Positions 11,941 to 43,122 of a stretch of DNA of 55,180 nt are shown one piece after another. The notes under the pieces are model-generated. The model searched no databases. It saw only the letters and a list, made by a program, of their open reading frames with translations, and had not been told where the DNA came from. Position numbers and translations under genes: made by a program. Numbering within the stretch: the first letter of the stretch is position 1; each line of letters starts with the position of its first letter. Source of the stretch: Hylemonella sp. GTDB taxonomy: Bacteria > Pseudomonadota > Gammaproteobacteria > Burkholderiales > Burkholderiaceae_C. The stretch covers positions 1 to 55,180 of the forward strand of contig NZ_JAPZSV010000013.1 in assembly GCF_027532185.1 (NCBI RefSeq). The letters run 5' to 3'.

Positions 11941-12022
11941 CAAGCCTCCTGCCGAGCCGCCTCAAAGGAGGCTTGCGCCCCCTCGGGGGGCAGCGAATAC
12001 ACGAAGTGATGAGCGTGGGGGT
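11941..12022 (-). repeat. Structured intercistronic element, copy A
   Basis: Bases 11941-11975 form a 9-bp stem (CAAGCCTCC / GGAGGCTTG) with an inner 3-bp hairpin GAG-CCGC-CTC. On the mRNA sense strand the 3' arm holds the scoB Shine-Dalgarno and stops 3 nt before the start codon. A second part to 12022 has CCCCCTCGGGGGG and ACGAAGTGA. A related copy lies at 43021-43122. Confidence 0.75.
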
Positions 12023-12037
12023 ACATATCGGTTCTCC

Positions 12038-12739
12038 TTACTTCTTCTCGGTGAGCGTGCGCTTCTCGATGCGCTTCTCGGGCGTGGCATTGAGCACGAT
12101 GCGGTGCACATAGATGCCTGGCAGGTGGACATCATCCGGGGCCAGCTCGCCGGTCTCGACGATCTTCTCCACCTCCACGATGCAGACCTTGCCGGCCATG
12201 GCCGCGGCCGGGTTGAAGTTGCGCGCCGTCAGGTTGAAGCGCAGGTTGCCCGACTTGTCGGCGATGTCGGCTTTCACCAGGGCCACGTCGGGCACCAGGG
12301 AACGCTCCATCACATAGGTCTCGCCGTCGAACTCGCGCAGCTCCTTGCCCTCGGCCACCACGGTGCCCACGCCGGTCTTGGTGAAAAAGGCCGGGATGCC
12401 CGCACCGCCGGCACGCAGCTTCTCGGCCAGCGTACCCTGGGGCGTGAACTCCAGCTCCAGCTCACCGGCCAGGTACTGGCGCTCGAACTCCTTGTTCTCG
12501 CCCACGTAGCTGGAGATCATCTTCTTGATCTGGCGCGTCTGCAGCAGCTTGCCCAGGCCGAAGTCGTCGACGCCGGCGTTGTTGGAAATGGCCGTCAGGT
12601 TCTTGATGCCGGCATCACGCACGGCGTCGATCAGGGCCTCGGGGATGCCGCAAAGGCCGAAGCCCCCGACGGCAATCAGCTGGCCGTCACGCACCACGCC
12701 CTGGATGGCGGCGGCCGCACTCGGATAGACCTTGTTCAC
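12038..12739 (-). CDS. scoA: 3-oxoacid CoA-transferase subunit A
   Basis: 233 residues from a GTG start at 12739, preceded by AAGGAG at 6 nt. The CoA-binding glycine loop GGFGLCGIPEAL and the segment NNAGVDDFGLGKLL are typical of the alpha subunit of succinyl-CoA:3-ketoacid CoA-transferase. It works as a heteromer with ScoB, encoded next. The divergent PAS-LuxR gene 87 nt away is the likely regulator. The spacer to scoB carries the repeat element described at 11941. Confidence 0.95.
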   Translation of the reverse strand: MNKVYPSAAAAIQGVVRDGQLIAVGGFGLCGIPEALIDAVRDAGIKNLTAISNNAGVDDFGLGKLLQTRQIKKMISSYVGENKEFERQYLAGELELEFTPQGTLAEKLRAGGAGIPAFFTKTGVGTVVAEGKELREFDGETYVMERSLVPDVALVKADIADKSGNLRFNLTARNFNPAAAMAGKVCIVEVEKIVETGELAPDDVHLPGIYVHRIVLNATPEKRIEKRTLTEKK

Positions 12740-12779
12740 GCTGTTCTCCTTGTCTCGGTATTTGTTTCAGCAGAGCGTA

Positions 12780-12817
12780 CGATACTACTTATAGAGGTAC
12801 GTAGTTATGCCTAAAAT
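12780..12817. promoter_or_regulatory. Divergent scoAB / luxR-type control region
   Basis: The AT-rich spacer holds an imperfect inverted repeat around 12784-12804 (TACTAC ... GGTACGTA) and a TAAAAT hexamer at 12812. TATAAG and TAGTAT on the minus strand could serve as -10 boxes for scoA. The repeat is a candidate binding site for the adjacent LuxR-type regulator; hexamer assignments are tentative. Confidence 0.4.
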
Positions 12818-12826
12818 ACGACCCCC

Positions 12827-13381
12827 ATGGACATCGACTACCGCCTGGCCTTCGAATACGCGCCCATCGGCATGGTGCTCTCGCGCGACCGCATCATCAT
12901 GGACTGCAATCGGCAGCTGTGTGACATGTTCGGCACTACGCGCGAGGCGCTCGTCGGCCAGTCCTTCCAGGTGCTCTACCCCAGTGCCGAGGAATTCGAG
13001 CGCATCGGCGCGCGCATCGTCCCCATCATGAACCGCCAGGGCAGCTACGCTGACGACCGCATCATGAAACGGGTCGATGGCCGTTTCAAGGGCGAGGTTT
13101 TCTGGTGCCATGTCACCGGCCGCGCGCTGGACCCGGAACAACCCCTGGGCGCCGGCATCTGGACCCTGGAAGATCTGAGCGCACGCCGTCCGGTCAAGTC
13201 CGAACTCACCGCGCGCGAGCGTGAGGTCGCCGCCCACCTGCTCGAAGGCCTGACGTCCAAGGAAATCGGCAAGTCCCTGGCCATCAGCTACCGCACGGTG
13301 GAAATCTACCGCGCCCGCCTCATGCGCAAGTACAAGGCCAACACCACGGCCGACCTGGTGCACAAGCTCACGGTGGGCTAA
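12827..13381 (+). CDS. PAS-domain LuxR-family transcriptional regulator
   Basis: 184 residues. An N-terminal PAS domain (about 5-115, LAFEYAPIGMVLSRDRIIMDCN) is followed by a LuxR/NarL helix-turn-helix (about 123-180, ELTAREREVAAHLLEGLTSKE, then YRTVEIYRARLMRKY). There is no receiver Asp pocket, so the signal is sensed through the PAS domain and not by phosphorylation. It is divergent from scoAB and probably controls that operon. The ligand is unknown. No Shine-Dalgarno is obvious before the ATG, and a -10-like TAAAAT only 10 nt upstream hints at a very short leader. Confidence 0.88.
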   Translation: MDIDYRLAFEYAPIGMVLSRDRIIMDCNRQLCDMFGTTREALVGQSFQVLYPSAEEFERIGARIVPIMNRQGSYADDRIMKRVDGRFKGEVFWCHVTGRALDPEQPLGAGIWTLEDLSARRPVKSELTAREREVAAHLLEGLTSKEIGKSLAISYRTVEIYRARLMRKYKANTTADLVHKLTVG

Positions 13382-13416
13382 AGCGGCGCGTCGGCCGGGT
13401 TCAACAGACGGTACTC

Positions 13417-13436
13417 GCCGTGCGACACCGCACGGC
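13417..13436 (+). terminator. Hairpin after the PAS-LuxR gene
   Basis: A perfect 8-bp stem GCCGTGCG / CGCACGGC with loop ACAC lies 36 nt after the stop. There is no T-tract, so termination would need help or the stem has another role. Confidence 0.4.
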
Positions 13437-13547
13437 GCCTCGCGGACATGTCCTGGCCGGACGTAGGGGTCAGCCGGACAGACGCGCGCCTTTTGCGGCA
13501 GAATCGGACCGATGCCCAAAAAATGGGCACAGGGAGAAGGGGAGCGG

Positions 13548-16500
13548 GTGAAAACGCACTCAAGCTTCGAAACCAAGGTTCTGGCTGCCTTCACTGCTGC
13601 CATGCTGGTGGTGGCGGGGCTGGTCGCAGTCACCTGGAAAGTGGCCCAGGACGCCACCGACGCATCCCGCTGGATCACCCACACCTACCAGGTCATCGAC
13701 CATCTCACCCGCATCCGCGGGGAGACGCTGCAGATCGATTTCAGCACCCAGGGCTACCGCCTCACGGGCGACGCCGGTCGCCTGACTGAGCGCGACGAAG
13801 CCATCGCCCTGCGTGAGGCCCTGCTGGAACGGGTGCGCGACCTCGTCGCCGACAACAGCGTGCAGATGGCCCGCCTGCAACAACTGCGCGCGGTGCTCGA
13901 CGAACGCCTGGCGATCTCACGCCGCCTGGTGGAACTCATCCGTACCCAGGGCACCGAGGCCGCCACACGCTACGCGAACAACGCACCGCTGCAGGCCACA
14001 CGACAACTGACCTACCGACTGCTGCGCGAGATGGAGGCCGACGAGTTGCGCCTGCTCGACGAACGCAAGAATGCCTACGAAAGCGCCAAGCGGGCGCTGA
14101 TGGGCGCCGGCCTCGTTGTGGCGCTGCTGCTCTCCGCCCTGCTCACCGGCACTTACCTGCTGTTGCGTCGCCAGCTGCGTGCCACCGAAGCGGGCCGCCA
14201 GGCCCTGGCCGAAAGCGAGGAGAACCTGGCCATCACCCTGCACTCCATCGGCGACGGCGTCCTGGTGACCGACCGCGCTGGCCGCATCACGCGCATGAAC
14301 CCGGTGGCCGAGCGGCTGACTGGCTGGACGCAGGCGCAAGCCCTGGGTCACCCGATCGACGAGGTCTTTCCCATCGTGCACGAGGAGACGCGCGCACCGG
14401 CGGAAATACCGGTCGCCCGGGTACTGGCCACCGGTGAGGTGCAGGGGCTGGCCAACCACACCACCCTGTTGGCGCGCGACGGACGCGAGATCCCCATCGC
14501 CGACAGCGCAGCCCCCATCCACAACGCCAGGGACGAGATCGTCGGCGTGGTAATGGTCTTCCGCGACGTCAGCGCCGAGCGCGCGGCCCAGCGTCTGGTG
14601 ACCCAGCAGAACCTGCTGCTGGAACAGAACGTGATCGAGCGCTCGGCCCAGCTGCGCGAGAGCCAGGAACACCTGAACAGCATCATCAACGGTGCCCCGG
14701 CCCTGATCGCCTACCTCGATACCGAGTTGCGCGTCGTCTACGCCAACACGCATTTCCGTCGCCGCTTCGCGCCCGACGGTCGCGATATCACCGGCCGCAC
14801 CGTGCGCGAAGTCGCGGGGGAGGAGCGCTATGCGATGGCCAGCGCTGCCCTCGCCCGCGCGCTGCAGGGCGAAGCGCAGAGCTTCGACTGGCAGCCCTTT
14901 CCGGACGTCTGGCAGGTGAGCAACTATGTCCCGCGTCGCGACGCACAGGGACAGGTGATCGGCTGCTACGTGCTGGGCACCGACATCACCGAACGAAAAC
15001 GGCACGAGTCCCAGATCGAAACCCTCAACACCGAGCTGGCTCAACGCGTGCGCGAGCTCGAACATGTCAGCCGCGCGCTGCGCACCCTCAGCGCCGGCAA
15101 CCGCACCATGCTGCGTGCCCACGACGAGCAGGAGCTGCTTGACAGCATGTGCCGTACGATCGTGAACGCCGGCGGCTACAGCGTGGCCAAGGTCTGGTTC
15201 CGCTCCGACGATGCCGGCCAGTCGCTCTGGCCGGCCGCCGAGCATGGCTACCCCGGCGGCATGGCTGCGCTGCGCCTGCGCAAGACCAGCTGGGCCGACA
15301 ACGCCCACGGCCGCAACATCGTGGGCATGGCCATCCGCAGCGGAGAGCCTGTGGCGGTGCAGGACATCGCGGCCGACCCGAACCACGCCCCTTGGCGCTC
15401 GCTGCTTGACGGCCAGGCCTCGGGCCTGGCCTGCCCGCTGCACGTGGGCGGCAGTGTGATCGGCGCCCTGGCCATCTACCAGCCCGAGCCCGGTGCCTTC
15501 GACGCCGACGAGATCAGCCTGCTCAGTGCCCTGGCCGACGACCTCGCCTTCGGCATCACCACCCTGCGCGAGCGAGCCGAGCAGCAGCGCACGCGCCAGG
15601 CCATGCACCACCTGACCCACCACGATGCGCTGACCGGCCTGGCCAACGAGACCCAGTTCAACGAGCTGCTCAACGCCGCCGTGGAGCAGGGCCTGCGCGG
15701 CGGCGCGCATTTCGCCATGCTGCAGACCAATATCGAGCGCCTGGGCGAGATCAACGACGCACTGGGCTTCAGCCAGGGCGACCAACTGCTGCGTGAGTTC
15801 GCGCAGCGTCTGGCCCAGGCCGCACCGCCCGGTGCCACCGTGGCGCGCCTGCGCGGCGACGAATTCGCGCTGCTGCTGCCCGGCGGTGACAGCGCCGCGG
15901 CCCAGCGCCTGGCGCTGCGCCTGCACGAGGTGCTGCGCCCACCCTTCGCGCTGGCCGATCTGGCGCTGGACGTCACGGCGCGTATCGGCATCGTCGCCTA
16001 CCCCGAACACGGCCTGACCCCGCACGACCTGTTCCGCCACATGGACATGGCCGTGCGCCAGGCCAAGAAGCAGGGCAACGGGCTGGCGCTCTACGACCCG
16101 CGGCTCAGCCCCGCGCCCGCGCAGCGTCTGACCTTCGCCGGTGAGCTGCGCCGTGCCATCGAGGGCGGACAGCTCACGCTCTACCTGCAGCCCAAGGTCG
16201 AGATGGCCAGCGGTCGCGTCTGCGGCGCTGAAGGCCTGGTGCGCTGGGCCCACCCTGTGCGCGGCATGATCCCGCCCGGCGAATTCATCGAGCTGGCCGA
16301 GCACACCGGCCTGATACGCCCTTTGAGCGCCTGGGTGCTGGAAACCGCCTTCCACCTGAACCAGCACTGGAGCGGACGCGGCCAGGGCCTGCCCATCGCC
16401 ATCAACCTCTCCGCGCGTAATCTGCGCGACGAAAGCCTGCCCCCGCTGATCCGCGACCTGCAGACGGCCTGGCGCGGCGGCGAAGGCCTGCTGGAGATCG

Positions 16501-16898
16501 AGATCACCGAGAGCACCGCCATGGAAGACCCGGAGTTCGCGCTGCGCGTGCTGCACGAGCTGCGCGACCTGGGCGTGCCGCTGCACATCGACGACTTCGG
16601 CACCGGCTACTCCTCGCTGAGCTATCTGCAGAAGCTGCCCGTGGACTGCATCAAGATCGACCAGTCCTTCGTGCGCAATATGGTGAGCAGCAAGGAATCG
16701 GCGCTGATCGTGCGCTCCACCATCGACCTCGCGCACGACCTGGGCCGCAAGGTCGTGGCCGAGGGCGTGGAAACGCGTCAGCACTGGGAGCAGCTGGCCA
16801 CCCTGGGCTGCGACATGGCCCAGGGCTACTACATCGCCCGCCCCATGCCGGCCGAGGCCTTCCAGGCCTGGCTGCGCGACTACCAGCCCCCAGACTGA
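13548..16898 (+). CDS. Membrane sensor with CHASE3-like, PAS, PAS, GAF, degenerate GGDEF and EAL domains
   Basis: 1116 residues from GTG 13548, which has AGAAGG 7 nt upstream; an ATG at 13512 would add 12 residues but lacks a Shine-Dalgarno. Two membrane helices (11-30, 185-206) bracket a CHASE3-like four-helix sensor. Two PAS domains (about 225-345, 372-485) and a GAF domain (about 515-675) follow. The GGDEF motif reads RGDEF (769-773) and the metal-binding Asp of the first strand is replaced (LQTNIERLG), so cyclase activity is unlikely. The EAL domain keeps its key residues (EGLVRW 895-900, INLSARN, EITEST, DDFGTGYSSL, KIDQSFV, AEGVET). I infer a c-di-GMP phosphodiesterase tuned by envelope and cytoplasmic signals. 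Confidence 0.92.
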   Translation: MKTHSSFETKVLAAFTAAMLVVAGLVAVTWKVAQDATDASRWITHTYQVIDHLTRIRGETLQIDFSTQGYRLTGDAGRLTERDEAIALREALLERVRDLVADNSVQMARLQQLRAVLDERLAISRRLVELIRTQGTEAATRYANNAPLQATRQLTYRLLREMEADELRLLDERKNAYESAKRALMGAGLVVALLLSALLTGTYLLLRRQLRATEAGRQALAESEENLAITLHSIGDGVLVTDRAGRITRMNPVAERLTGWTQAQALGHPIDEVFPIVHEETRAPAEIPVARVLATGEVQGLANHTTLLARDGREIPIADSAAPIHNARDEIVGVVMVFRDVSAERAAQRLVTQQNLLLEQNVIERSAQLRESQEHLNSIINGAPALIAYLDTELRVVYANTHFRRRFAPDGRDITGRTVREVAGEERYAMASAALARALQGEAQSFDWQPFPDVWQVSNYVPRRDAQGQVIGCYVLGTDITERKRHESQIETLNTELAQRVRELEHVSRALRTLSAGNRTMLRAHDEQELLDSMCRTIVNAGGYSVAKVWFRSDDAGQSLWPAAEHGYPGGMAALRLRKTSWADNAHGRNIVGMAIRSGEPVAVQDIAADPNHAPWRSLLDGQASGLACPLHVGGSVIGALAIYQPEPGAFDADEISLLSALADDLAFGITTLRERAEQQRTRQAMHHLTHHDALTGLANETQFNELLNAAVEQGLRGGAHFAMLQTNIERLGEINDALGFSQGDQLLREFAQRLAQAAPPGATVARLRGDEFALLLPGGDSAAAQRLALRLHEVLRPPFALADLALDVTARIGIVAYPEHGLTPHDLFRHMDMAVRQAKKQGNGLALYDPRLSPAPAQRLTFAGELRRAIEGGQLTLYLQPKVEMASGRVCGAEGLVRWAHPVRGMIPPGEFIELAEHTGLIRPLSAWVLETAFHLNQHWSGRGQGLPIAINLSARNLRDESLPPLIRDLQTAWRGGEGLLEIEITESTAMEDPEFALRVLHELRDLGVPLHIDDFGTGYSSLSYLQKLPVDCIKIDQSFVRNMVSSKESALIVRSTIDLAHDLGRKVVAEGVETRQHWEQLATLGCDMAQGYYIARPMPAEAFQAWLRDYQPPD

Positions 16899-16948
16899 AC
16901 GGGACACGGGCCGGTCTATCATGGCCGCAACACCATGAGGAGACCACC

Positions 16949-17530
16949 ATGAGCCGCTACCCTGCCCCCGAGATCAAGGACCTGCCCGAGGACATCCGCG
17001 CCAAGATCCTGGAGGTGCAGGAGAAGGCCGGCTTCGTGCCCCAGGTCTTTCTGGCGCTGGCGCGCCGGCCGGCCGAGTGGCGCGCCTTCTTCGCCTACCA
17101 CGACGCGCTCATGCTCAAGGAGGACGGCGGCCTGAGCAAGGGCGACCGCGAGATGATCGTCACCACCACGAGCGCGGCCAACCAGTGCCTCTATTGCGTG
17201 GTGGCGCATGGTGCCCTGCTGCGTATCTACGAGAAGAAGCCCCTGGTGGCCGACCAGGTGGCGGTGAACTACCGCAAGGCCGACATCACGCCGCGTCAGC
17301 GCGCCATGCTGGACTTCGCCATGAAGGTCTGCCTGCGCTCGCATGAAATCGAGGAGACCGACTTCGCCCCGCTGCACGCGCACGGCTTCTCGGACGAGGA
17401 CATCTGGGACATCGCCGCCATCACAGCCTTTTTCGGTCTCTCGAACCGCATGGCGTCCTTCAGCAACATGATGCCCAACCCCGAGTTCTACCTGCTGGGA
17501 CGCGTGCCGCGGGAAAAAAAGCCAGCCTGA
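16949..17530 (+). CDS. AhpD-like peroxidase-related protein
   Basis: 193 residues. The AhpD/carboxymuconolactone decarboxylase fold is shown by NQCLYCVVAHGALL, with redox Cys80 and Cys83 and proton-relay His87. The length and the N-terminal LPEDIRAKILEVQEKAGFVPQVF match the 'peroxidase-related enzyme' subfamily. These proteins reduce peroxides or act in oxidative defence; the electron donor is not known here. GAGGAG lies upstream of the ATG. It begins 50 nt after the EAL protein and may be in the same transcript. Confidence 0.88.
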   Translation: MSRYPAPEIKDLPEDIRAKILEVQEKAGFVPQVFLALARRPAEWRAFFAYHDALMLKEDGGLSKGDREMIVTTTSAANQCLYCVVAHGALLRIYEKKPLVADQVAVNYRKADITPRQRAMLDFAMKVCLRSHEIEETDFAPLHAHGFSDEDIWDIAAITAFFGLSNRMASFSNMMPNPEFYLLGRVPREKKPA

Positions 17531-17624
17531 CCCCACGCTTGTCATGCCGGCGCCGCTGGCCTATGCTTGCCCTCCCGGGGCGTTGATCCGCGGCCATTCC
17601 GCCGCCGCCCGGAGAGAGACTGCC

Positions 17625-18080
17625 ATGCGTTCCATCCATCCCGCCGCTGCCCTGCTCACCACCCTGCTGCTGTGCACGCCTGCCCACGCCGCTGACGACG
17701 GCTACAACAGCGGCGCCAGTGATGATGGCCTGCGGCCGGCACGCACGCAGATCGCCGAGAAGAACTGGCTGAGTGCCGTGGCCACCCTCAACGCCTACAC
17801 GCGGGCCAACCCCAAGAGCGCCGATGGCTACAACCTGCTGGGCTACAGCTACCGCCAGCTGCAGCGCTACAACGAGTCGCTCGATGCCTACCAGCGCGCG
17901 CTCGCGCTCGATCCCAAGCATCGCGGCGCCCATGAGTACATTGGCGAAGCCTATCTGGCGCTGGGCCGGCTCGACAAGGCCAAGGAACACCTGGATGCGC
18001 TGGACAAGATCTGTTTCCTTCCTTGCGAGGAATATCGCGACCTGAAGCGCTCCTACGAAGCGGCCCTGCGCAGCAAGTAG
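17625..18080 (+). CDS. Periplasmic TPR-repeat protein
   Basis: 151 residues from ATG 17625, with GGAGAG upstream and a Sec signal peptide (MRSIHPAAALLTTLLLCTPAHA). The mature part holds about three tetratricopeptide repeats, for example YNLLGYSYRQLQRYNESLDA and HEYIGEAYLALGRLDKAKEH. The C-terminal KICFLPCEEYRDLK, with two Cys five residues apart, is a recurring ending in small secreted TPR proteins. Likely role is protein-protein contact in the periplasm. No partner is evident next to it. Confidence 0.85.
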   Translation: MRSIHPAAALLTTLLLCTPAHAADDGYNSGASDDGLRPARTQIAEKNWLSAVATLNAYTRANPKSADGYNLLGYSYRQLQRYNESLDAYQRALALDPKHRGAHEYIGEAYLALGRLDKAKEHLDALDKICFLPCEEYRDLKRSYEAALRSK

Positions 18081-18227
18081 CTCGGTCGGTCAGGACCGGA
18101 CGCCCGGTTCAGACACTCAGAAACTTTCCCAGTCGTCGTCGCACCTGGCGGGCATGGTCGGCCTGGCTGAGGATGCCGGCACGGCCGGCGCACGGGCGCA
18201 GGGGCCCGGCGTCGAGTGTCAGCGCGT

Positions 18228-20939: not shown

Positions 20940-21079
20940 CCTCCACCCTCTTTCCGTGTCGCCCGCAGGCTGGCCGTTTCAGGTTGTCCGTAGAATCGCA
21001 GGGGCCGACTCCCTGGCACACACTCTAGCGGAGGCAGGACATTCGCGCCATCAGGGACATTCCCCCGGACGCCCGGTAC

Positions 21080-21862: not shown

Positions 21863-21895
21863 GGCGGAACCTTTCGCAAAATACCCGACAAAAAA

Positions 21896-21909
21896 AGAAC
21901 GGTCGTTCT
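21896..21909. promoter_or_regulatory. Palindromic operator candidate, TetR type
   Basis: AGAACG-GT-CGTTCT in the 178-nt spacer between the divergent SDR and ETF-QO genes. The AACG...CGTT form is typical of TetR-family operators. It lies 34 nt before the SDR start. No tetR gene is adjacent. Confidence 0.5.
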
Positions 21910-34476: not shown

Positions 34477-34528
34477 GGGTGAGGGTTCCGGCAACAGGGA
34501 AAGGGTTGCATCAAAAAGATTAGTGATG

Positions 34529-34552
34529 CGAATGATAATGGTTATTATTATA
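34529..34552 (-). promoter_or_regulatory. Fur box and -10 of the iron-uptake operon
   Basis: On the minus strand AATAACCATTATCATTCGC matches the Fur consensus (GATAATGATAATCATTATC) closely, and a perfect TATAAT -10 overlaps its upstream edge (34547-34552). The region is far more AT-rich than its surroundings. Fur with iron would block the promoter directly. Confidence 0.85.
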
Positions 34553-34590
34553 TTCACAGAACCGACGACGGTCCTGGCGGCCCCGCCCCT

Positions 34591-35118
34591 TCAGTCCCGC
34601 GCGCGGGGCCTGAGGATCATCTGATCCTGCTGCAGCAGGATGTCAAAGCGAGCGAGAAAGCTCTGGCCCAGCAGGGCATCGCTGCTGTCGGGGCCCGTGA
34701 GGCCCACGCCCACCCGCACAGCCGAGACGCTGACCGGCCCCACGGTCACCGGCACACCGGCGACGATGCGGCCGGGGCGCTGGCCATTGGCCGTCATGAA
34801 GACGGCCGACTCCCCGGCCCCCAGGCCCGCCTTGCGCGCCAGCTCTTCGCTGACCGACACCAGAGACGCGCCGGTATCCACGAGAAAGTTCACGGGCTGG
34901 CCGTTGACCAGGCCGGGCGCATAGAAATGCCCGTCACGGGCGCGCGGGATCACGAGCTCGCCACGGGCGCTGACCGTCACGGGCGCCGGCTGCAGGTAGC
35001 GGTCCATGAAGTAATAGAGCACGCCCATCACCGCCAGCCAGAAGGCCAGGATGCCCAGCGTGCCGCGGCGTACGCTGCGGCCCAGCCCGGCCCTCACCTC
35101 GTCTTCCTGCTCGCTCAT
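34591..35118 (-). CDS. Membrane-anchored retropepsin-like aspartic protease
   Basis: 175 residues. One membrane anchor (about 20-38, LGILAFWLAVMGVLYYFMD) precedes a clan AA domain with the active-site Asp81-Thr-Gly in FLVDTGASLVSV and a C-terminal LLGQSFLARFDI, the 'ALLGM' hydrophobic-Gly motif of the TIGR02281 family. It would dimerise in the periplasm. The substrate is unknown. The gene starts 14 nt after the diguanylate cyclase and is probably its operon partner; it ends 39 nt before the Fur box. Confidence 0.88.
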   Translation of the reverse strand: MSEQEDEVRAGLGRSVRRGTLGILAFWLAVMGVLYYFMDRYLQPAPVTVSARGELVIPRARDGHFYAPGLVNGQPVNFLVDTGASLVSVSEELARKAGLGAGESAVFMTANGQRPGRIVAGVPVTVGPVSVSAVRVGVGLTGPDSSDALLGQSFLARFDILLQQDQMILRPRARD

Positions 35119-35132
35119 GGCCAGGGAGTATC

Positions 35133-36344: not shown

Positions 36345-36440
36345 CGTGCTTTTCTTGTCGGAGCGTCCGGGGGGATTGGCGCCTCCCTCAAGGCGTGGCA
36401 GCCATTGTGCAGGCCCCGGGCGGACCTTGGCAAAGAAAGA

Positions 36441-36741
36441 TCGGCACAAATGCGCAATCCCGCGTACAATACGCTTCGCTGCTGCAACTTGCTTACCTTT
36501 GCGCAGCTGTTGTCTGACACGGCCCGCGGTCCTACCTACACCGCCCGCCCCGCCTGACCGGCCGCTCTCACCGGCTTTTTCTGGTCGTCACACTCCCCTT
36601 CTGCGGCAAGCCCTATCCCCGGTCTTTTGACGTTTCCTTTCCCTGACCGGACCGCCTGGCGGCTTGTGCCGCGACGTCCTGCCTTGTGCTCGACGGTTTG
36701 ATTGACCTTTGCAACGCGCGACGATACGCGCGCCCCTTTTG
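36441..36741 (+). promoter_or_regulatory. Promoter and long leader of the infA cassette
   Basis: TCGGCA (36441-36446) and TACAAT (36465-36470) with an 18-nt spacer form a plausible sigma-70 promoter. Transcription from about 36477 gives a leader of some 265 nt before the first start codon. The leader is pyrimidine-rich and has no open frame. Long leaders are typical of cold-shock mRNAs; that role is inference. The stretch 36345-36440 shows nothing else. Confidence 0.45.
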
Positions 36742-36978
36742 ATGAACACCACCCTAGAAAAAGCATTCTCGGTGGGCAAGTACCTTGTCTCACCCCTCAT
36801 CCGCACCACCGACACGGGCCGCTACCAAGCGTCCGTCTCGATCCGCAGCGGCAGCGGCCGCGGCACGCATGACCGCGTGTTCCGCTTCGTGCCCGAATTC
36901 AGCACGCGTGAAGGCGCACTGCAGTACGCCATCAACGAAGGCTGCAGCTGGCTGCGCCAGCGCCACAGCTACGCCTGA
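36742..36978 (+). CDS. Small basic protein of unknown function
   Basis: 78 residues from ATG 36742 ([20 protein letters not shown]); no Shine-Dalgarno, and an in-frame start at 36709 is possible. The sequence alternates polar and hydrophobic residues ([20 protein letters not shown]), suggesting a beta sheet, then a helix with [16 protein letters not shown]. It resembles small RNA- or DNA-binding folds but I do not recognise the family. It is the first gene of the cassette with infA 37 nt downstream. Confidence 0.65.
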
Positions 36979-37015
36979 CCCCGTTACACATCGACAAGCC
37001 CCGAAGGAGGACCCC

Positions 37016-37282
37016 ATGGCCAAGGAAGAACTGATCGAAATGCAAGGCAAGGTAGAAGAAGTGCTGCCTGATTCGCGCTTTCGCGTCACCCTGGACAACG
37101 GCCACAGCCTGGTGGCCTATACCGGCGGCAAGATGCGCAAGCATCACATCCGCATCCTGGCGGGCGACAAGGTCTCGCTGGAACTCTCGCCCTATGACCT
37201 GGGCAAGGGCCGCATCACCTTCCGCCACCTCGAACCCCGCTCCGGCGGTGCACCGGCCCAGCCGCGTCGCACCTTCCGCTGA
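37016..37282 (+). CDS. infA: Translation initiation factor IF-1
   Basis: 88 residues, full S1/OB fold: [20 protein letters not shown], then [20 protein letters not shown] and [16 protein letters not shown]-1 occupies the ribosomal A site during initiation. The C-terminal tail [12 protein letters not shown] is longer than in E. coli. Burkholderiales often carry two infA genes; this one, outside the ribosomal-protein cluster and beside an RNA-binding protein, is probably the extra cold-linked copy. AAGGAGG precedes the ATG. Confidence 0.95.
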
Positions 37283-37377
37283 ACCCCTTCCTTGATGGTT
37301 TTTCAAACCAAGACCGTCATTTCCCCCGCGCCGAGATGTCACTGGCATCAACAGCGCTTTTTTTGAAAGGCTCTCCC

Positions 37378-37716
37378 ATGAGCAGCAAACTTTACGTCGG
37401 CAACCTCTCCTACTCGGTGCGCGACGACGATCTTCAACAAAAATTCGGTGAGTTTGGCGACGTGCAGTCCGCCAAGGTCATGATGGACCGTGACACCGGC
37501 CGCTCCAAGGGCTTCGGCTTCGTGGAGATGGGCTCGGCCGATCAGGCCGAGTCCGCCATCCGCGGCATGAACGGCCAGAACGTTGACGGCCGCGACATGG
37601 TCGTGAACATCGCCCGTCCGATGGAGCCGCGCACCGGTGGTGGCGGCTTCGGCGGCGGCCGTCGTGAAGGCGGCGGCGGCGGTTACGGCGGCGGCGGTGG
37701 CCGTCCCCGTTACTGA
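37378..37716 (+). CDS. Glycine-rich RRM RNA-binding protein
   Basis: 112 residues from ATG 37378, with AAAGG upstream. One RNA-recognition motif: RNP2 LYVGNL (5-10) and RNP1 KGFGFVEM (44-51). A Gly/Arg tail (about 88-112) follows, as in cyanobacterial Rbp and plant cold-inducible RNA-binding proteins. It probably acts as an RNA chaperone. It is the third gene of the cassette with infA, and a strong terminator follows. Confidence 0.93.
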   Translation: MSSKLYVGNLSYSVRDDDLQQKFGEFGDVQSAKVMMDRDTGRSKGFGFVEMGSADQAESAIRGMNGQNVDGRDMVVNIARPMEPRTGGGGFGGGRREGGGGGYGGGGGRPRY

Positions 37717-37737
37717 AGCCTCGCGGCTTCGCCTGAG

Positions 37738-37763
37738 AAACCGGCCCCTGGGCCGGTTTTTTT
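37738..37763 (+). terminator. Terminator of the infA-RRM cassette
   Basis: 9-bp stem AAACCGGCC / GGCCGGTTT with a 4-nt loop and a run of seven T, 22 nt after the RRM gene stop. Confidence 0.93.
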
Positions 37764-37809
37764 ACGCCTGCACGGTTAAGATCATCGCCTCGACTATGGA
37801 GTGACGGAC

Positions 37810-38178
37810 ATGATCAGGTTCAGCGACGAACACGTGTGGGTGCGGGTGGAGGGCGAAACAGGCGTGGTGGGCATCACCGTGCATGCCCAGGACACCCTGG
37901 GCGACATCGTCTTCGTGGACCTGCCGGCCGTGGGCAAGGTGCTGGCGGCCGGCGAGATCGCCGGCGTGGTCGAATCTGTCAAGGCCGCGGCCGACGTCTA
38001 CACCCCGGTCAGCGGTACCGTCACCGAGGTCAACGAAGCCCTGCGCGCCGACCCGGCCCTGGCCAACAGCGAGCCGTTGAGCACCGGCTGGTTCTACAAG
38101 CTCAGCCTCAAGAACCCGGCCGAACTCGACACCCTGATGGACGAAGCCGCCTACGCCAAGTTCAGCGCCCAGGCCTGA
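37810..38178 (+). CDS. gcvH: GcvH-type lipoyl carrier protein
   Basis: 122 residues from ATG 37810, with GGAG 8 nt upstream; a GTG at 37801 is the alternative. The lipoylated lysine is Lys58 in VVESVKAAADVYTPVSG, and ALRADPALANSEPLSTGWFY gives the C-terminal half. GcvH shuttles the aminomethyl group between P, T and L proteins of the glycine-cleavage system. No gcvT or gcvP lies in the window, so it is a lone copy here. It could be a second H protein or a lipoyl-relay carrier. Confidence 0.9.
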   Translation: MIRFSDEHVWVRVEGETGVVGITVHAQDTLGDIVFVDLPAVGKVLAAGEIAGVVESVKAAADVYTPVSGTVTEVNEALRADPALANSEPLSTGWFYKLSLKNPAELDTLMDEAAYAKFSAQA

Positions 38179-38194
38179 GGCCTGCGCCCCGGGC

Positions 38195-38239
38195 CTGTCA
38201 CCCGGCTGTCGTCAGCCTGTCATCTTGCGGCCGTACAAA
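38195..38239 (+). promoter_or_regulatory. Triple Pho box and -10 of phoX
   Basis: Three direct 7-mers (CTGTCAC 38195, CTGTCGT 38206, CTGTCAT 38217) repeat with an exact 11-nt period. A -10 box TACAAA starts 10 nt after the last repeat (38234). This is the textbook PhoB-activated promoter layout, with no -35 hexamer needed. Confidence 0.92.
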
Positions 38240-38295
38240 CGGCAGACCGGCATCCGCCCGCGGTGCCTTCCCTCCGACGCAAGACGACCGACGAC

Positions 38296-40197
38296 ATGGC
38301 CAAAGACTTCGCCCGCATGGAGAACAGCAACTGTTCCTCCAACCCCAGCTTTCATGACGTTTCCGACCCGGCCCGCCGCACAGTGCTGCGCGGCGGCCTG
38401 GGCGCCGCATTGGGCGGCCTGCTAGCCCCGCTGGCCGGCTGTGCCAGCCCTGGCACCCGCAAGCCCTTGCTGGGTTTTGCCAGCGTGCCGGTAAGCACGG
38501 CGGACAGCATCGTGGTCCCCGAGGGCTATCTCGCACAGGTCATCGCGCCCTGGGGCGACCCCGTGGGCTTGCCCGAACACAGTCCGGCCTTCCGGTCCGA
38601 CGGCGGCAACAGCGCGGTGGAGCAGGCTGCCCAACTGGGGATGCACCACGACGGCATCCACTACTTCGCCCTGCACGGCTCCGAGCGCGGCCTGCTGGTG
38701 CTCAACCACGAGTACACCGACGAGGGCCTGCTGTTCGCCGACGGCCAGCAGAACTGGAGCGCCGAGAAGGTACGCAAGGCCCAGGCCGCGCATGGCGTCT
38801 CGGTGATCGAGGTCGTGCAGCGCCGCGGGCGCTGGGAGCAGGTACGTCCCTCGCCCTGGGCGCGGCGTATCACGGCCAACACACCCATGGCCGTGGCCGG
38901 TCCGGCAGCAGGCCATGCGCTGATGCGCACCAGCGCCGACCCCGAAGGCCGCCGCGTGCTGGGCACGCTCAACAACTGCGGCAGCGGCATCACGCCCTGG
39001 GGCACCTACCTCAGCTGTGAAGAGAACTTCATCAACTACTTCAGCGGCGGTGACACACCCAGCGAGCATGAAAAACGCTGGGGCCTCCGGAAGGGCGATG
39101 CCGGCGGCTACCGCTGGCACGAGCATGACGCCCGCTTTGACGCGACGCGGGAGCCCAACGAGCCCAACCGCTTCGGCTGGATCGTGGAGATCGACCCCAT
39201 GGATCCGACGTCCACCCCGATCAAGCGCACGGCCCTGGGGCGCGCCGCGCACGAAGGCGCCACGGTGGCAATCACGAAGGACCGCCGCGCGGTGGTCTAC
39301 ATGGGCGAGGATGCGCGCTTCGAATACATCTACAAGTTCGTCAGCCGTGATCGCATCCAGAGCGGCGGGGCGCGCGCCAACGCCACGCTGCTGGACCACG
39401 GCACGCTCTACGTCGCCAGGTTCAACCCGGACGGCAGCGGCCAATGGCTGCCCCTCACCCATGGCCAGGGCCCCCTGACGGCCGCGAACGGCTTTGCCGA
39501 TCAGGGAGACGTGCTGATCAGGAGCCGCCAGGCAAGCGACGCGCTGGGAGCCACCAAGATGGACCGACCCGAGTGGATCGATGTGGACCAGAACGGCTGG
39601 GTCTACTGCACGCTGACCAACAACAGCAACCGGGGTGCGGGCGCAAGCCCGGGCACGGATGCCGCCAACCCGCGCGCCGGCAACAGCATGGGCCACATCA
39701 TCCGCTGGCAGGAAGACGGTGACTTCGACAGCACGCGCATGCGCTGGAACCACTTCGTACTGGCCGGCGACCCGGCCAACACGCGCGCCGAAGCGCGCGG
39801 CAATGTGCAGGGCGACATGTTCGCCTGCCCTGATGGCCTCTGGACCGATGCGCGCGGCCTGCTCTGGATCCAGACTGATATGTCGACCTCGGCCATGGGC
39901 AAGGGGGATCTGGCACGCATGGGCAACAACATGATGCTCGCCGCCGACCCGGCCACGGGCGAGATCCGCCGCTTCCTCACTGGCCCGCGGGGCTGCGAGA
40001 TCACGGGCGCCACGGCCACGCCGGACGGCCGCACGATGTTCATCAACATCCAGCACCCGGGCGAGAGCCCCTCGGAGCGCAGCGACCCGGCCGATCCGGG
40101 CCGCTACTCCACCTGGCCCTCGGGCCAGCCCGGCGCGCGTCCGCGTTCAGCCACGGTGGTCATCCGCAAGCGCGATGGCGGTGTGATTGGGACCTGA
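38296..40197 (+). CDS. phoX: PhoX-family alkaline phosphatase
   Basis: 633 residues from ATG 38296; no good Shine-Dalgarno, so the start could also be 38317. A twin-arginine signal (ARRTVLRGGLGAALGG) ends in a lipobox-like LAGC, so the mature enzyme is periplasmic or lipid-anchored. The PhoX (DUF839) core is seen in LNNCGSGITPWGTYLSCEEN, GRAAHEGATVAI and NVQGDMFACPDGLW. PhoX enzymes use calcium and iron to release phosphate from organic esters. A three-unit Pho box upstream shows phosphate-starvation control. Confidence 0.94.
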   Translation: MAKDFARMENSNCSSNPSFHDVSDPARRTVLRGGLGAALGGLLAPLAGCASPGTRKPLLGFASVPVSTADSIVVPEGYLAQVIAPWGDPVGLPEHSPAFRSDGGNSAVEQAAQLGMHHDGIHYFALHGSERGLLVLNHEYTDEGLLFADGQQNWSAEKVRKAQAAHGVSVIEVVQRRGRWEQVRPSPWARRITANTPMAVAGPAAGHALMRTSADPEGRRVLGTLNNCGSGITPWGTYLSCEENFINYFSGGDTPSEHEKRWGLRKGDAGGYRWHEHDARFDATREPNEPNRFGWIVEIDPMDPTSTPIKRTALGRAAHEGATVAITKDRRAVVYMGEDARFEYIYKFVSRDRIQSGGARANATLLDHGTLYVARFNPDGSGQWLPLTHGQGPLTAANGFADQGDVLIRSRQASDALGATKMDRPEWIDVDQNGWVYCTLTNNSNRGAGASPGTDAANPRAGNSMGHIIRWQEDGDFDSTRMRWNHFVLAGDPANTRAEARGNVQGDMFACPDGLWTDARGLLWIQTDMSTSAMGKGDLARMGNNMMLAADPATGEIRRFLTGPRGCEITGATATPDGRTMFINIQHPGESPSERSDPADPGRYSTWPSGQPGARPRSATVVIRKRDGGVIGT

Positions 40198-40227
40198 CAC
40201 CCCTAAGGGGCTACGCCGCCGCGTACT

Positions 40228-40283
40228 GACGGCCAGAGGCCGTCGCTCTTCGGGCGGTCCCAGCCTGCGCAGGCAGGCTGGGA
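40228..40283. terminator. Tandem hairpins between phoX and anbu
   Basis: A 7-bp stem GACGGCC / GGCCGTC and an 11-bp stem TCCCAGCCTGC / GCAGGCTGGGA lie between convergent genes. There is no T-tract. They probably end both transcripts with help, or are REP-like units. Confidence 0.5.
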
Positions 40284-40386
40284 GCTGCAGCCCTCAGCCC
40301 CTCTCTCGCCGACGGCGGGAGAAGATGCTCCCGGCGGCCTGGCCAAGCCAGTTCCGCGCGAGCCTTGGCCCAAGACCCGTCGTCGG

Positions 40387-41118
40387 CTAATTCCAGTAGC
40401 CCGGGTCGGGCAGCTCATTGAAGACCTTGCGCAGCTGCTCGCCCCAGCGCTCGCGCAGCGAGGTGAAATAGGGGTCCTTGCCATCAATCTGGGCCCGACG
40501 TTTCACCTCAAAGCTATCTTTTTCATAGCAAAGAAGATCCAGTGGCAGGCCCACCGATAGGTTGGACTTCATGGTCGAGTCCATGGAGATCAGGCAGCAT
40601 TTGGCCACCTCGTCCAGGCTCAGCTGGCCGCCGATCACACGGTCCAGGATGGGTTTGCCGTACTTGGACTCGCCGATCTGGAAATACGGCGTCTCGGGCG
40701 TGGCCTCGATGAAGTTGCCGGCCGCGTAGATGTTGAAGAGCCGCGGCTCCTCGCCCTTGATCTGCCCGCCCAGGATGAGGCTGACGTTGAACTCGATGCC
40801 GAACTCCTTCAGCGCCGCGGCATCGCGCTCATGCACCTTGCGCACGGCCTCGCCCACAATCTTGGCCGCCGAGAACAGATTGGGCGCATTGGCCAGACTC
40901 TTTTCTCCCGCGGTCCCCATCTGCACCTTCAGGCCGCTGGCCACCGACTGGCTGATGGCCAGGTTGCCCGCAGTGAGCAGCACCAGCACGCGCTCGCCCG
41001 GCACCTCGTAGACGTGCATTTTGCGGAAGGTGTTGATCTGGTCCACCCCGGCATTGGTGCGCGAGTCGGACAGGAAGACCAGTCCGGCTTCGTTGCGGAC
41101 GGCGACGCAATAGGTCAT
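40387..41118 (-). CDS. Anbu, proteasome-related N-terminal-nucleophile protein
   Basis: 243 residues from ATG 41118. I chose this start because it puts Thr directly after Met (M-TYCVAVRNEAGLVFLSDSR), the nucleophile of the proteasome beta fold; the frame to 41226 adds a non-conserved tail. SDSRTNAG and GKPILDRVIGGQLSLDEVAK are typical of Anbu, also called bacterial proteasome homologue. Known Anbu forms open helical rings; its protease role is unsettled. It ends the operon CP-ATP-grasp, alpha-E, transglutaminase, Anbu. Confidence 0.93.
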   Translation of the reverse strand: MTYCVAVRNEAGLVFLSDSRTNAGVDQINTFRKMHVYEVPGERVLVLLTAGNLAISQSVASGLKVQMGTAGEKSLANAPNLFSAAKIVGEAVRKVHERDAAALKEFGIEFNVSLILGGQIKGEEPRLFNIYAAGNFIEATPETPYFQIGESKYGKPILDRVIGGQLSLDEVAKCCLISMDSTMKSNLSVGLPLDLLCYEKDSFEVKRRAQIDGKDPYFTSLRERWGEQLRKVFNELPDPGYWN

Positions 41119-41234
41119 GGCGCTGTAGTCTCCAGCTGTGTTCTTGGTCGGTGCGCCCTCGGGCGCACCGGTCTGCGTGGCCGCGGTTGTATCCGGGACG
41201 GGATCGCTGGCGGACGGAAGGTTCATGCGCGATC

Positions 41235-42059
41235 TTACTGGTCGGCGCCCTGCACCGCCACGCTCACGGTGAGCGCCTCACCGGCACCACCGACATGGAT
41301 GCCGCGCATGGGGCTGGCGTCGGCGTAGTCGCGGCCCACGGCCAGGCGGCAGAGCTCAGGGCCGGCAAGACGCTGGTGCGTGACGTCGAAGCCCACCCAG
41401 GCCCCGGCACCGCCACGGGCGCGCGGCAGCCAGGCTTCGGCCCAGGCATGCGAGGCGGCGTGGCTGGCATCGGTCAGCAGGTAGCCGCTGACATAGCGCG
41501 CCGGAATGCCGCGGGCGCGGCAGCAGGCCAGGAATACGTGGGCCATGTCCTGGCAAACGCCCTGCCCCTGGCGCAGCACCTCGGCCGCGGTGTGGAACAC
41601 GTCAGTGACGCCCTGCACATAGGCCACGCGCGTGAAGACGGCGTCGACCAGGGCTTGCAAGGTATCCGGGTGCGCCAGGTCCTCGGCCCGGACGCCGGTG
41701 ATCGCCTCGGCAGCCAGGGCATCGATGGCCGCGTCTGCGCTGGTCAGCGGCGTGGGTTGGGCAAAGGCCAGCGGTGGCACGGCCGAATCGTGGGGCAGCA
41801 GCACGCCGCGCTCGTCCGCCGTCTCGACCTGGCCCTGAGCGACCACACGCACCTCGTCGTGCGGATCGGTCAGCGAGGTGACGAAGATGGCATTGCCATA
41901 GGCGTCGGTCTGGGCCCAGCGCCGGCCCGGCGCGTCGATGCGCCAGTGCAGCACGCGCTGGCCGCCATCTCCACGCGGCCACAGGCGCATGTACTGCAGG
42001 CTGTAACTGGCGGGCACCGCGTAGCGGTAGAGGGTTTCATGGCGAATGTCGAGCAGCAT
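41235..42059 (-). CDS. Transglutaminase-family protein of the Anbu operon
   Basis: 274 residues. The N-terminal beta domain (HETLYRYAVPASYSLQYMRL) is the bacterial transglutaminase-like (BTG) N domain. The catalytic triad is Cys169 in GQGVCQDMAHVFLACCRARG, His204 in SHAWAEAWLP and Asp225 in GFDVTHQR. Such cytoplasmic proteins are always found with alpha-E and ATP-grasp genes and may process or make an amide-linked peptide. The gene starts 16 nt after the alpha-E stop. Substrate unknown. Confidence 0.93.
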   Translation of the reverse strand: MLLDIRHETLYRYAVPASYSLQYMRLWPRGDGGQRVLHWRIDAPGRRWAQTDAYGNAIFVTSLTDPHDEVRVVAQGQVETADERGVLLPHDSAVPPLAFAQPTPLTSADAAIDALAAEAITGVRAEDLAHPDTLQALVDAVFTRVAYVQGVTDVFHTAAEVLRQGQGVCQDMAHVFLACCRARGIPARYVSGYLLTDASHAASHAWAEAWLPRARGGAGAWVGFDVTHQRLAGPELCRLAVGRDYADASPMRGIHVGGAGEALTVSVAVQGADQ

Positions 42060-42075
42060 GGTCGCTCCTGGGGTC

Positions 42076-43017
42076 TCAGCTGATGGGCAGCAGGAAATCC
42101 TGCGCGATGCGGTTGCCCAGATCGGCCGTGCCGTCCAGGAAATCGGTCAGCACGGCGTGCAGGCCGCGCGCGGCGATGTCCTCGATACGGCCGTAGCGCA
42201 GCCCCGAGTACATGGCGCCGGCACGCCGCATGGTTTCCTGGGAACGCGCATTGGCAACCTGACCCAGGATCTGGTGGACCTCCTTCATGCACGCGTGCAG
42301 GGAGCGCGGCATGTCCTCGCGCAGGATCAGCAGCTCCGCCACGCGCTGCGGCGTGATCATGTCGCGGTAGACCTTGCGGTAGATCTCGAAGGCCGAGACC
42401 GAGCGCAGCAGCGCACTCCACTCGTAGTACTCGCCATCGGCACTGGTCTGCGGCGCGAGTTCGTCAAACTTCACGTCGAGCAGACGGGCCGTGTTGTCGG
42501 CGCGCTCGAGGAAGGTCCCGAGACGTATGAAATGGAAGGCTTCGTCCTGCAGCATGGTGCCCACGGTGACACCGCGCGAGAGATGGGAGCGGAACTTGAC
42601 CCATTCGAAATACTTGGTGAGCTCGCTTCCCTGGATGCTGCCCTGGGGCAGGGACTGCACCGAGTCACGCGCCTCCAGCCAGGTGGTGTTGACGGTCTCC
42701 CAGACCTCGGACGTGACCGTGCCGCGCACGGCATGGCAGTTCTCACGTGCGGCACGCAGGCAGGCCAGGATGGACGAGGGGTTGTCCAGGTCCACGCTCA
42801 TGAAGCGCAGCACGTTGCCGGCGGTGATGACGCCGTACTTGGCGCGGTAGGCCTCCTCCAGGCCGTTGATACCCAGGGCGGCGCCCCAGTAGCCCCCCTG
42901 GACGTGCGGCGTCTGTAGCGACATGCGGTAGCTCACCTCGAGCATCCGCGCGATATTCTCGGCCCGCTCGGTGTAGCGGGACATCCAGTAGAGGTGGTCA
43001 GCGGTGCGGGACAACAT
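42076..43017 (-). CDS. Alpha-E domain protein
   Basis: 313 residues from ATG 43017 (MLSRTADHLYWMSRYTERAE), the hallmark start of the alpha-E family. GGAG of the Shine-Dalgarno lies 7 nt upstream, inside the 3' arm of a 9-bp stem (43021-43055). The open frame to 43308 overlaps the ATP-grasp gene and is spurious. The family is helical and Glu-rich, and is fused or adjacent to ATP-grasp and transglutaminase proteins. It is thought to be part of a peptide-ligase complex; biochemical function is unknown. Confidence 0.93.
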   Translation of the reverse strand: MLSRTADHLYWMSRYTERAENIARMLEVSYRMSLQTPHVQGGYWGAALGINGLEEAYRAKYGVITAGNVLRFMSVDLDNPSSILACLRAARENCHAVRGTVTSEVWETVNTTWLEARDSVQSLPQGSIQGSELTKYFEWVKFRSHLSRGVTVGTMLQDEAFHFIRLGTFLERADNTARLLDVKFDELAPQTSADGEYYEWSALLRSVSAFEIYRKVYRDMITPQRVAELLILREDMPRSLHACMKEVHQILGQVANARSQETMRRAGAMYSGLRYGRIEDIAARGLHAVLTDFLDGTADLGNRIAQDFLLPIS

Positions 43018-43020
43018 GGT

Positions 43021-43122
43021 CAGGTCTCCTGCCGGGCCGCCCCAAGGGAGACCTGGGCCCCACGGACATCGAAGAGGGCCATGACTGGCCCCGGGCGCCG
43101 CGAACGAAGTGAGTTTCGGGGC
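43021..43122 (-). repeat. Structured intercistronic element, copy B
   Basis: Bases 43021-43055 form a 9-bp stem (CAGGTCTCC / GGAGACCTG) with an inner 3-bp hairpin GGG-CCGC-CCC. The sense strand 3' arm gives the alpha-E Shine-Dalgarno and ends 3 nt before the start. ACGAAGTGA recurs at 43104. Copy A is at 11941-12022; the two 35-nt cores share 28 bases. Confidence 0.75.

What the first reader, a model, noticed from the sequence alone, without database searches (positions are those of the whole stretch)
11941..43055. A covarying RNA-hairpin element at two loci supplies the ribosome site
Two 35-nt segments, 11941-11975 before scoB and 43021-43055 before the alpha-E gene, are 28/35 identical. In the sense strand each has a 9-bp outer stem, an inner 3-bp hairpin with GCGG loop, the Shine-Dalgarno in the 3' arm, and ends exactly 3 nt before the ATG. 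The seven differences comprise three compensatory pairs (outer stem positions 3/33 and 5/31, inner stem 15/22) and one loop change. That pattern is what selection on RNA structure leaves. It may gate translation of the second cistron, or be a repeat family that settles before genes.
Basis: partly seen in the sequence, partly recalled or inferred. Interest (0 to 1): 0.85.

Follow-up and report, generated by a model that had tools for sequence, protein, structure and literature searches.

The report
Mobile hairpin minicistron at gene starts
A short mobile DNA repeat of beta-proteobacteria lands at the start codons of genes in operons and brings a tiny reading frame and, in one branch of the family, its own ribosome-binding site in a hairpin, so that the gene it lands on can probably stay coupled to its operon.

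Summary
The hairpins at 11941-11975 and 43021-43055 are 28/35 identical, with three compensatory pairs (the inner one is 14/21, not 15/22). They are the 3' half of a ~90-nt interspersed repeat, with at least 22 copies in this genome and relatives in many named Burkholderiales and Rhodocyclales genomes. Empty sites in relatives show insertion at the start codon. Among testable GGAG-armed copies this held for 66 of 67 and 52 of 53, against 0-3 in the other frames. GGAG-armed copies lie at starts (ATG within 3-14 nt in 87 of 90); same-core copies without GGAG mostly do not (25 of 123, 5 of 36), though 9 of 16 in the own genome do. The SD is predicted to be more buried than native SDs. Best reading: a translational-coupling element that works like mycobacterial MIRUs and engineered bicistronic leaders, probably of the 2011 "BRE" family, for which no function was proposed; letters could not be compared. 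No experiment; no mobilising enzyme found.

The parts
11939..12030 (-). Repeat copy A (about 90 nt) between scoA and scoB
   Evidence: Model R1 match 11937-12031, 93.9 bits (the copy was among the 38 sequences of the model); absent at the orthologous junction of G016 and G020
11941..11975 (-). 3' hairpin of copy A
11945..11950 (-). AGGAGG Shine-Dalgarno in the 3' arm of copy A, 7 nt before the scoB ATG
   Evidence: Sequence
11940..12026 (-). Minicistron A, 28 codons plus TGA; stop 2 nt before the scoB ATG
   Evidence: stop-to-start offset -5
12032..12037 (-). GGAGAA, by inference the original SD of scoB, now in front of minicistron A
   Evidence: The empty sites of G016/G020 have GGAGAACrACATG at the scoB start
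11299..11937 (-). scoB, 3-oxoacid CoA-transferase subunit B (downstream gene)
   Evidence: TIGR02428
12038..12739 (-). scoA, 3-oxoacid CoA-transferase subunit A (upstream gene)
   Evidence: TIGR02429
43018..43127 (-). Repeat copy B, with a diverged 5' half, before the Alpha-E gene
   Evidence: Model R1 match 43017-43131, 49.9 bits (also among the model's sequences); absent at this junction in G020, G016, G025, G013 and others
43021..43055 (-). 3' hairpin of copy B
43025..43030 (-). AGGAGA Shine-Dalgarno in the 3' arm of copy B
   Evidence: Sequence
43020..43127 (-). Minicistron B (a start 3 nt earlier, at 43130, is also in frame); stop 2 nt before the Alpha-E ATG; its start overlaps the stop of the upstream gene
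42076..43017 (-). Alpha-E family gene (downstream gene)
   Evidence: PF04168
43127..44557 (-). Circularly permuted ATP-grasp gene (upstream gene)
   Evidence: PF14403

Best explanation
Both loci are insertions of a short mobile repeat that works as a translational-coupling leader. It inserts at the start codon of a gene inside an operon and leaves an ATG on both sides. The left ATG, behind the gene's original ribosome site or overlapping the upstream stop, starts a roughly 25-35 codon minicistron. Ribosomes translating it run through and unfold the 3' hairpin, whose 3' arm holds the Shine-Dalgarno sequence of the downstream gene, and they stop at or next to that gene's start codon. They then re-initiate there, or let a new ribosome bind the exposed site. 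When the minicistron is not translated the hairpin hides the site, so expression follows the operon. Shown by sequence: insertion, frame, stop-start placement, SD placement, stem covariation; predicted by folding: burial of the SD. Inferred: that the minicistron is translated, that the hairpin represses, that coupling occurs, and that the element moves or moved by itself.
For: (1) Insertion: orthologous junctions without the element in relatives at scoB (G016, G020), Alpha-E (11 of 12 resolved loci) and two further own-genome sites. (2) Placement: among 90 GGAG-armed copies from the places listed by a 299-genome search, 87 have an ATG 3-14 nt downstream, 79 a called gene start there (caller run without SD bonus) and 87 lie between co-directional genes; of 86 in the 80 listed named loci, 80, 69 and 75. 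Of 125 in all 120 genome-contig loci, 115 have the ATG; without copies already in the first set, 109 of 118. Controls with the same core: 5 of 36 with GGA[A/C/T] arms and 25 of 123 without GGAG; background 0.14. Among non-GGAG copies that also lie between co-directional genes, 9 of 50 have a start within 20 nt, against 78 of 87 GGAG copies. (3) Frame: the ORF from the 5'-edge ATG stops within -15..+10 nt of the gene start in 66 of 67 (family set), 52 of 53 (named set), 9 of 9 (own genome) and 6 of 6 (non-GGAG, start within 20 nt); the same sequences read in frames +1/+2 give 3/3, 0/1, 0/0 and 0/0. (4) In GGAG copies the frame is kept although the 5' motif is read in any of three frames: 29/42, 59/91, 13/18. 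(5) SD-like tetramers precede the minicistron ATG in 45/68 and 40/61, against 103/680 and 95/610 control ATGs. (6) Predicted unpaired probability of the SD: median 0.064 (n=87) against 0.314 for native SDs (n=195). (7) Of 121 start-proximal copies with an upstream gene, 96 such genes end within 4 nt of the minicistron ATG; left and right flanks are more alike at -5..-1 than shuffled pairs. (8) One independent annotation: a Variovorax plasmid copy has a 28-codon minicistron that stops 1 nt before a RefSeq-annotated start.
Against: No expression or ribosome-profiling data. The minicistron counts leave out copies without a recognisable 5' motif or 5'-edge ATG, with a called start farther than 20 nt, or outside the ++ context: of 90 family copies 67 were tested, of 86 named 53, of 22 own 9; copy B of the window was dropped from the own-genome test. 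By the stricter scan 22 of 90 and 25 of 86 GGAG copies have no open phase-0 minicistron. The sets overlap: 8 of the 22 own copies are also in the non-GGAG set and 2 in the family GGAG set. In the own genome start proximity is not special to GGAG arms (6 of 6 GGAG, but also 9 of 16 others), so the SD arm cannot be the whole story. Shifted frames are an imperfect null in GC-rich DNA. The target duplication is weak and its length not fixed. The generic hairpin stem covaries over only about 7 pairs; -8/+9 to -10/+11 do not exceed shuffles.
Confidence: 0.78

Rival explanations
1. A stand-alone cis-regulatory RNA: the hairpin hides the SD and is opened by temperature, a protein or a ligand; the ORF is incidental.
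For: Stable hairpin with a predicted buried SD; stem covariation.
Against: The two window genes behind it are unrelated in function; the minicistron frame and stop-start placement would be unexplained; of 7 Rfam matches listed in the window only a tRNA is over its gathering score.
Confidence: 0.08
2. A neutral palindromic repeat: it inserts anywhere, only harmless insertions survive, and the paired changes come from hairpin-templated (quasi-palindrome) mutation rather than selection on RNA.
For: Many family members are inside genes in both orientations (20 sense, 28 antisense of 123); arms differ as matched pairs.
Against: GGAG arms and start codons go together with few exceptions, and the frame is kept in three different ways. 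This may still be right for the non-GGAG branches.
Confidence: 0.12
3. The product matters: the minicistron encodes a conserved functional peptide (..SLPPEGAQASLGAARREA).
For: Peptides look alike across the GGAG branch.
Against: The N-terminal part is read in three different frames, and the compensatory inner pair changes Glu to Gly; start-proximal non-GGAG copies read the hairpin in another frame.
Confidence: 0.04
4. A transcription terminator or attenuator between the two genes.
For: Strong GC-rich hairpin between genes.
Against: The hairpin is followed by the start codon, not by a run of U.
Confidence: 0.02

Closest known systems
MIRU (mycobacterial interspersed repetitive units; Supply et al. 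1997, not read: seen only as described in the review PMC12548453, passages read)
   Same: Short interspersed repeat, apparently mobile, inserted at start codons, with an internal ORF coupled to the gene, there with a 4-nt overlap.
   Different: Different phylum; no sequence comparison was made; here the coupled gene's SD can lie in a covarying hairpin inside the minicistron, spacing varies, and other branches of the family sit inside genes. Whether MIRUs carry such a hairpin was not checked.
BRE, beta-proteobacterial repeat element (Hot et al. 2011, PMC3110155; section 14 and passages read)
   Same: About 90 bp, GC-rich, reported from Comamonadaceae, Bordetella and Azoarcus, tandem copies, mostly intergenic, some inside genes. 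Probably the same family.
   Different: Its letters are in figures and supplements not available here, so identity is untested. Section 14 proposes no function and mentions no start-codon placement or ORF. Copy A is 64% GC, at the low end of the 63.7-78.9% given for Bordetella BREs.
Bicistronic design (BCD) expression leaders (search listings; one passage in PMC12548453)
   Same: Leader ORF that delivers ribosomes to the next gene and cancels inhibitory RNA structure; that the second SD lies inside the leader is recalled.
   Different: Engineered and not mobile.
Rickettsia palindromic elements, RPE (passages in PMC10969869)
   Same: Palindromic mobile elements found inside coding sequences in frame, as the in-gene copies here appear to be.
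   Different: Sequences were not compared and the host differs; the GGAG branch here is at gene starts instead.

Membership tests
MIRU | Insertion at start codons | tested here: met
   Empty sites at four own-genome loci
MIRU | Internal ORF coupled in position to the downstream gene, 4-nt overlap | tested here: met
   Stop next to start in 66 of 67 and 52 of 53 testable copies; exact ATGA overlap in 23 of 66 and 23 of 52, other spacings in the rest. Coupling itself was not measured.
MIRU | Sequence relationship to mycobacterial MIRUs | not tested
   No MIRU sequence was fetched; the hosts are beta-proteobacteria. I therefore say 'works like', not 'is a' MIRU.
BRE | About 75-91 bp repeat of beta-proteobacteria, dispersed and tandem, in intergenic regions and some genes | tested here: met
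   (many neighbours at about 84-86 nt)
BRE | Sequence identity to the published BRE | not testable with these tools
   None of the four sequence fragments tried occurs in the main text; figures and supplements not available
REP element with RAYT transposase | Element flanks a Y1 (PF01797) transposase gene | tested here: not met
   6 Y1_Tnp loci in 5 genomes (5 of 6 over the family cut-off); no core within 3 mismatches in any of the 6 loci of about 3.3 kb
Rfam families | Match above a gathering score | tested here: not met
   Of 7 matches listed in the window at E up to 5, only a tRNA at 9222-9292 is over its gathering score
Intrinsic terminator | Hairpin followed by a U run | tested here: not met
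   ATC/ACC then ATG follow

The most novel reading that the evidence does not exclude
A selfish repeat that spreads harmlessly because it carries a ready-made bicistronic leader: wherever it lands on a start codon it takes the gene's old ribosome site for its own minicistron and gives the gene a new, hairpin-hidden one, so it both survives in operons and rewires each hit gene into strict coupling. It is a second, independent origin of the MIRU strategy, with the SD inside a covarying hairpin, spread through many lineages of beta-proteobacteria.
Probability: 0.55. Interest if true: 0.8.

Novelty: new variant of a known kind. Interest (0 to 1): 0.68.

Why it matters
It would show how a mobile element can enter the most sensitive point of a gene without breaking it, give a natural collection of about 200 candidate bicistronic leaders (90 plus 118 GGAG-armed copies), some with empty sites in relatives, for testing translational coupling, and propose a first function for a repeat family (probably BRE) for which the 2011 paper proposed none.

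Tried and rejected
Rejected: terminator (no U run), known Rfam RNA, RAYT-linked REP, phage origin (no match in 50,697 phage records at E 0.01). Idea dropped: that the hairpin arms copy the target sequence; the scoB empty site lacks the arm sequence. Plasmids: 6 records match, none with 80% coverage; two were opened, and the Variovorax one lies just before a RefSeq-annotated start, has no GGAG arm, but has a minicistron. The covariance model was built from 38 sequences that include both window copies and other own-genome copies, so their scores are partly by construction; the search scored 150 of 3,331 first-look candidates, so 22 own copies is a lower bound. Of the 22, 19 are in ++ context and 15 have a called start 6-18 nt from the core (my count; one search gives 6 of 6 GGAG and 9 of 16 others within 20 nt). 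The first context table of the named set had a coordinate error in its called-start columns; one search replaces it. The printed list was cut; its totals are whole. My gene caller is a home-made codon-usage scorer trained on the window, not a published tool.

Limits of the counts: the family set (90) and the set from the 80 listed named loci (86) share 6 copies. One search listed only the first places of each genome; I took all listed places except copy B of the window, and copies at a locus edge were dropped (at least 1 in the family set, 1 of 87 named, 3 in the 120-locus set). GGAG arms were part of the search pattern, so only what lies outside the pattern (ATG, ORF, context) is a test; in that set the pairs -1/+2 to -3/+4 are fixed by the pattern and carry no covariation evidence. 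The non-GGAG set (123) comes from the own genome, one place from each of 30 genomes, one very copy-rich genome and five same-genus genomes, so it is not an even sample. Alpha-E junctions: 12 of 29 fetched loci could be resolved, 11 short and without the element, 1 with an unrelated 167-nt spacer; 17 unresolved. Paper searches, of which I saw listings (top hits only where many); none listed a report of this function for a beta-proteobacterial repeat.
Full report
What is there. In the minus (sense) strand each is the 3' half of a longer repeat whose general form is CCCCCACGCT...CACTTCGTG...CGCTGCCCCCCGAGGGGGC, then left arm, CTTGGGGCGGCCCGGC, right arm. Copy A spans about 11939-12030. Copy B spans about 43018-43127 and has a diverged 5' half.

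How widespread. The own genome has 22 matches to a covariance model at E up to 0.01, a lower bound because 150 of 3,331 candidates were scored. The exact 16-nt core occurs in 60 of 120 relatives, 56 of these in the same family, with one reverse-pattern control hit in all 120. One genome has 98 copies with up to one mismatch (2 control hits), many at about 84-86 nt spacing. A pattern for the GGAG-prone branch occurs in 71 of 299 family genomes, and a tighter one in named genomes such as Variovorax, Acidovorax, Polaromonas, Paraburkholderia, Trinickia, Azoarcus and Zoogloea.

It is an insertion. At scoB the closest relatives (92-96% identical in the flanks) read ..TAAGGAGAACrACATG.. where this genome has ..TAAGGAGAACCGATATG-element-TTGATCATG... 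At Alpha-E the resolved empty sites read like GAGGCATGACCATG (11 of 12 resolved loci, of 29 fetched). Two other own-genome copies also have empty orthologous sites; one of them is filled in one relative, G017. So the element goes in at the start codon and an ATG stands on both sides. Flanks left and right of start-proximal copies are more alike at -5 to -1 than shuffled pairs (z 1.9-3.7, 126 copies), a weak sign of target duplication. The scoB junction also carries a copy in G230 and G128 (L195, L210), and Alpha-E in G149 (L312) and in a Trinickia contig (L454), judged by the first residues of the downstream ORF only.

The minicistron. From the left ATG an ORF runs through the hairpin and ends at the next start: [28 protein letters not shown] in copy A. 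The test takes the ATG nearest the 5' motif and asks whether its ORF stops within -15..+10 nt of the called gene start (caller without SD bonus). Family GGAG set: 90 copies, 67 testable (9 with a start farther than 20 nt, 9 without motif, 2 without ATG, 3 not in ++ context), 66 pass; the shifted frames pass 3 and 3. Named set: 86 copies, 53 testable (11, 8, 4 and 10 dropped), 52 pass; shifted 0 and 1. Own genome: 22 copies, 9 testable (4 far, 6 without motif, 3 not ++), 9 pass; shifted 0 and 0. Non-GGAG copies: 123, 6 testable within 20 nt (41 far, 73 not ++ or in a gene, 2 without motif, 1 without ATG), 6 pass, three of them own-genome copies; out to 60 nt 17 of 23 pass against 3 and 5. In one search the 5' motif of GGAG copies is read in all three frames, yet the ORF that joins the hairpin in one fixed phase is there in each (29/42, 59/91, 13/18; 25 of 176 copies had no motif). 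Non-GGAG copies show 0 of 96 in that phase, but the start-proximal ones pass in other phases. Inheritance of one frame does not readily explain this; selection for an open path from start to stop does. Of 121 upstream genes, 96 end within 4 nt of the minicistron ATG, so the minicistron is tied in at both ends. In a Variovorax plasmid a copy without GGAG arm encodes MKYPHAHHCVYRCPPRGRSAPFGRPGGH and stops 1 nt before the RefSeq-annotated start of a permease gene.

The Shine-Dalgarno arm. With GGAG in the right arm 87 of 90 copies have an ATG 3-14 nt on; of the 3 others two show a GTG nearby. In the named set 80 of 86 do, 75 of 86 in ++ context and 4 inside a called gene. With the same core but another arm, 5 of 36 and 25 of 123 do, near the background of 0.14; among non-GGAG copies in ++ context 9 of 50 have a called start within 20 nt. 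The own genome is an exception: there 9 of 16 non-GGAG copies also have a start within 20 nt, so start-codon insertion is wider than the SD branch. The GGAG is predicted unpaired with median probability 0.064, against 0.314 for 195 native SDs from the window and fetched loci; 4.6% of these lie below 0.064. SD-like tetramers precede the minicistron ATG in 45 of 68 and 40 of 61 cases, against about 15% of control ATGs.

Covariation. In 160 distinct GGAG-type arm sets the inner pair core5/core12 is G-C 111, A-T 45, G-T 2, A-C 2, where the pattern allowed all four; core1/+1 is C-G 91, T-A 51, C-A 15, T-G 2, C-C 1. Outer pairs -7/+8 and -8/+9 pair in 88% and 76% against 41% and 47% shuffled; -9/+10 is 58% against 47%, and -10/+11 equals its shuffles. 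In 114 non-GGAG sets -1/+2 pairs in 98% against 48% shuffled, -4/+5 in 68% against 34%; -6/+7 is within the shuffled range and -8/+9 to -10/+11 are not above it. Shuffles ignore relatedness, and arms come in branches, so part of this is inherited; hairpin-templated mutation could also make paired changes in one step. Covariation alone therefore does not prove selection on RNA; frame and SD placement are the stronger evidence.

How it probably works, and what is inferred. Ribosomes reach the minicistron from the upstream gene or from the gene's old ribosome site, melt the hairpin that hides the new SD, stop at the gene's start, and re-initiate or make way for a new ribosome. The review PMC12548453 (passages read) describes both the RNA-unfolding and the scanning model for other coupled genes. 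No translation, coupling or movement has been measured here.

What it resembles. MIRUs of mycobacteria are described in that review in very similar words. The function is thus a known kind; the lineage, the hairpin-borne SD and the in-gene branches make it a new variant. The sequence family is probably BRE (PMC3110155), judged by size, taxa, tandem habit and location only. That the function is unreported rests on the ten paper searches named in Tried and rejected, in an open-access library only, and on section 14 of the BRE paper.

Noticed in passing
window 53450-53560, minus strand (L025): A third, diverged copy of the core (2 mismatches) with another 5' module; its right arm GGCGCTGAC is followed directly by an ATG at the called gene start 53453. 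It is not among the model matches.
   Followed up: partly
window 40246-40301 and 53503-53558: An inverted repeat pair (82%) resembling the module GCCTGCGCAGGCAGGC...CAGCCCC that stands in place of the 5' half of the element in several loci (L013, L064, L066, L186): the family seems to swap modules.
   Followed up: no
L042, L053, L147, L171, L178, L052 and others: Copies inside called genes in both orientations (48 of 123 non-GGAG copies), apparently read through in frame, like Rickettsia palindromic elements.
   Followed up: partly
L191/L248 (G268), L444 (Caballeronia telluris), L415, L428, L460: Tandem copies: some chained by ATGA overlaps, some fused into one longer ORF.
   Followed up: no
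G254 loci L251-L259: A branch with TCAG/CTGA arms, scattered in various contexts; this genome holds 38 matches to the TCC..GGA pattern.
   Followed up: no
L514 (own genome C12:134741-135067): A Y1 transposase (RAYT-like) gene, open frames of 237-340 aa in the five genomes searched, with GGGGTCAGA-type sequence in the flanks of several, not this repeat.
   Followed up: partly
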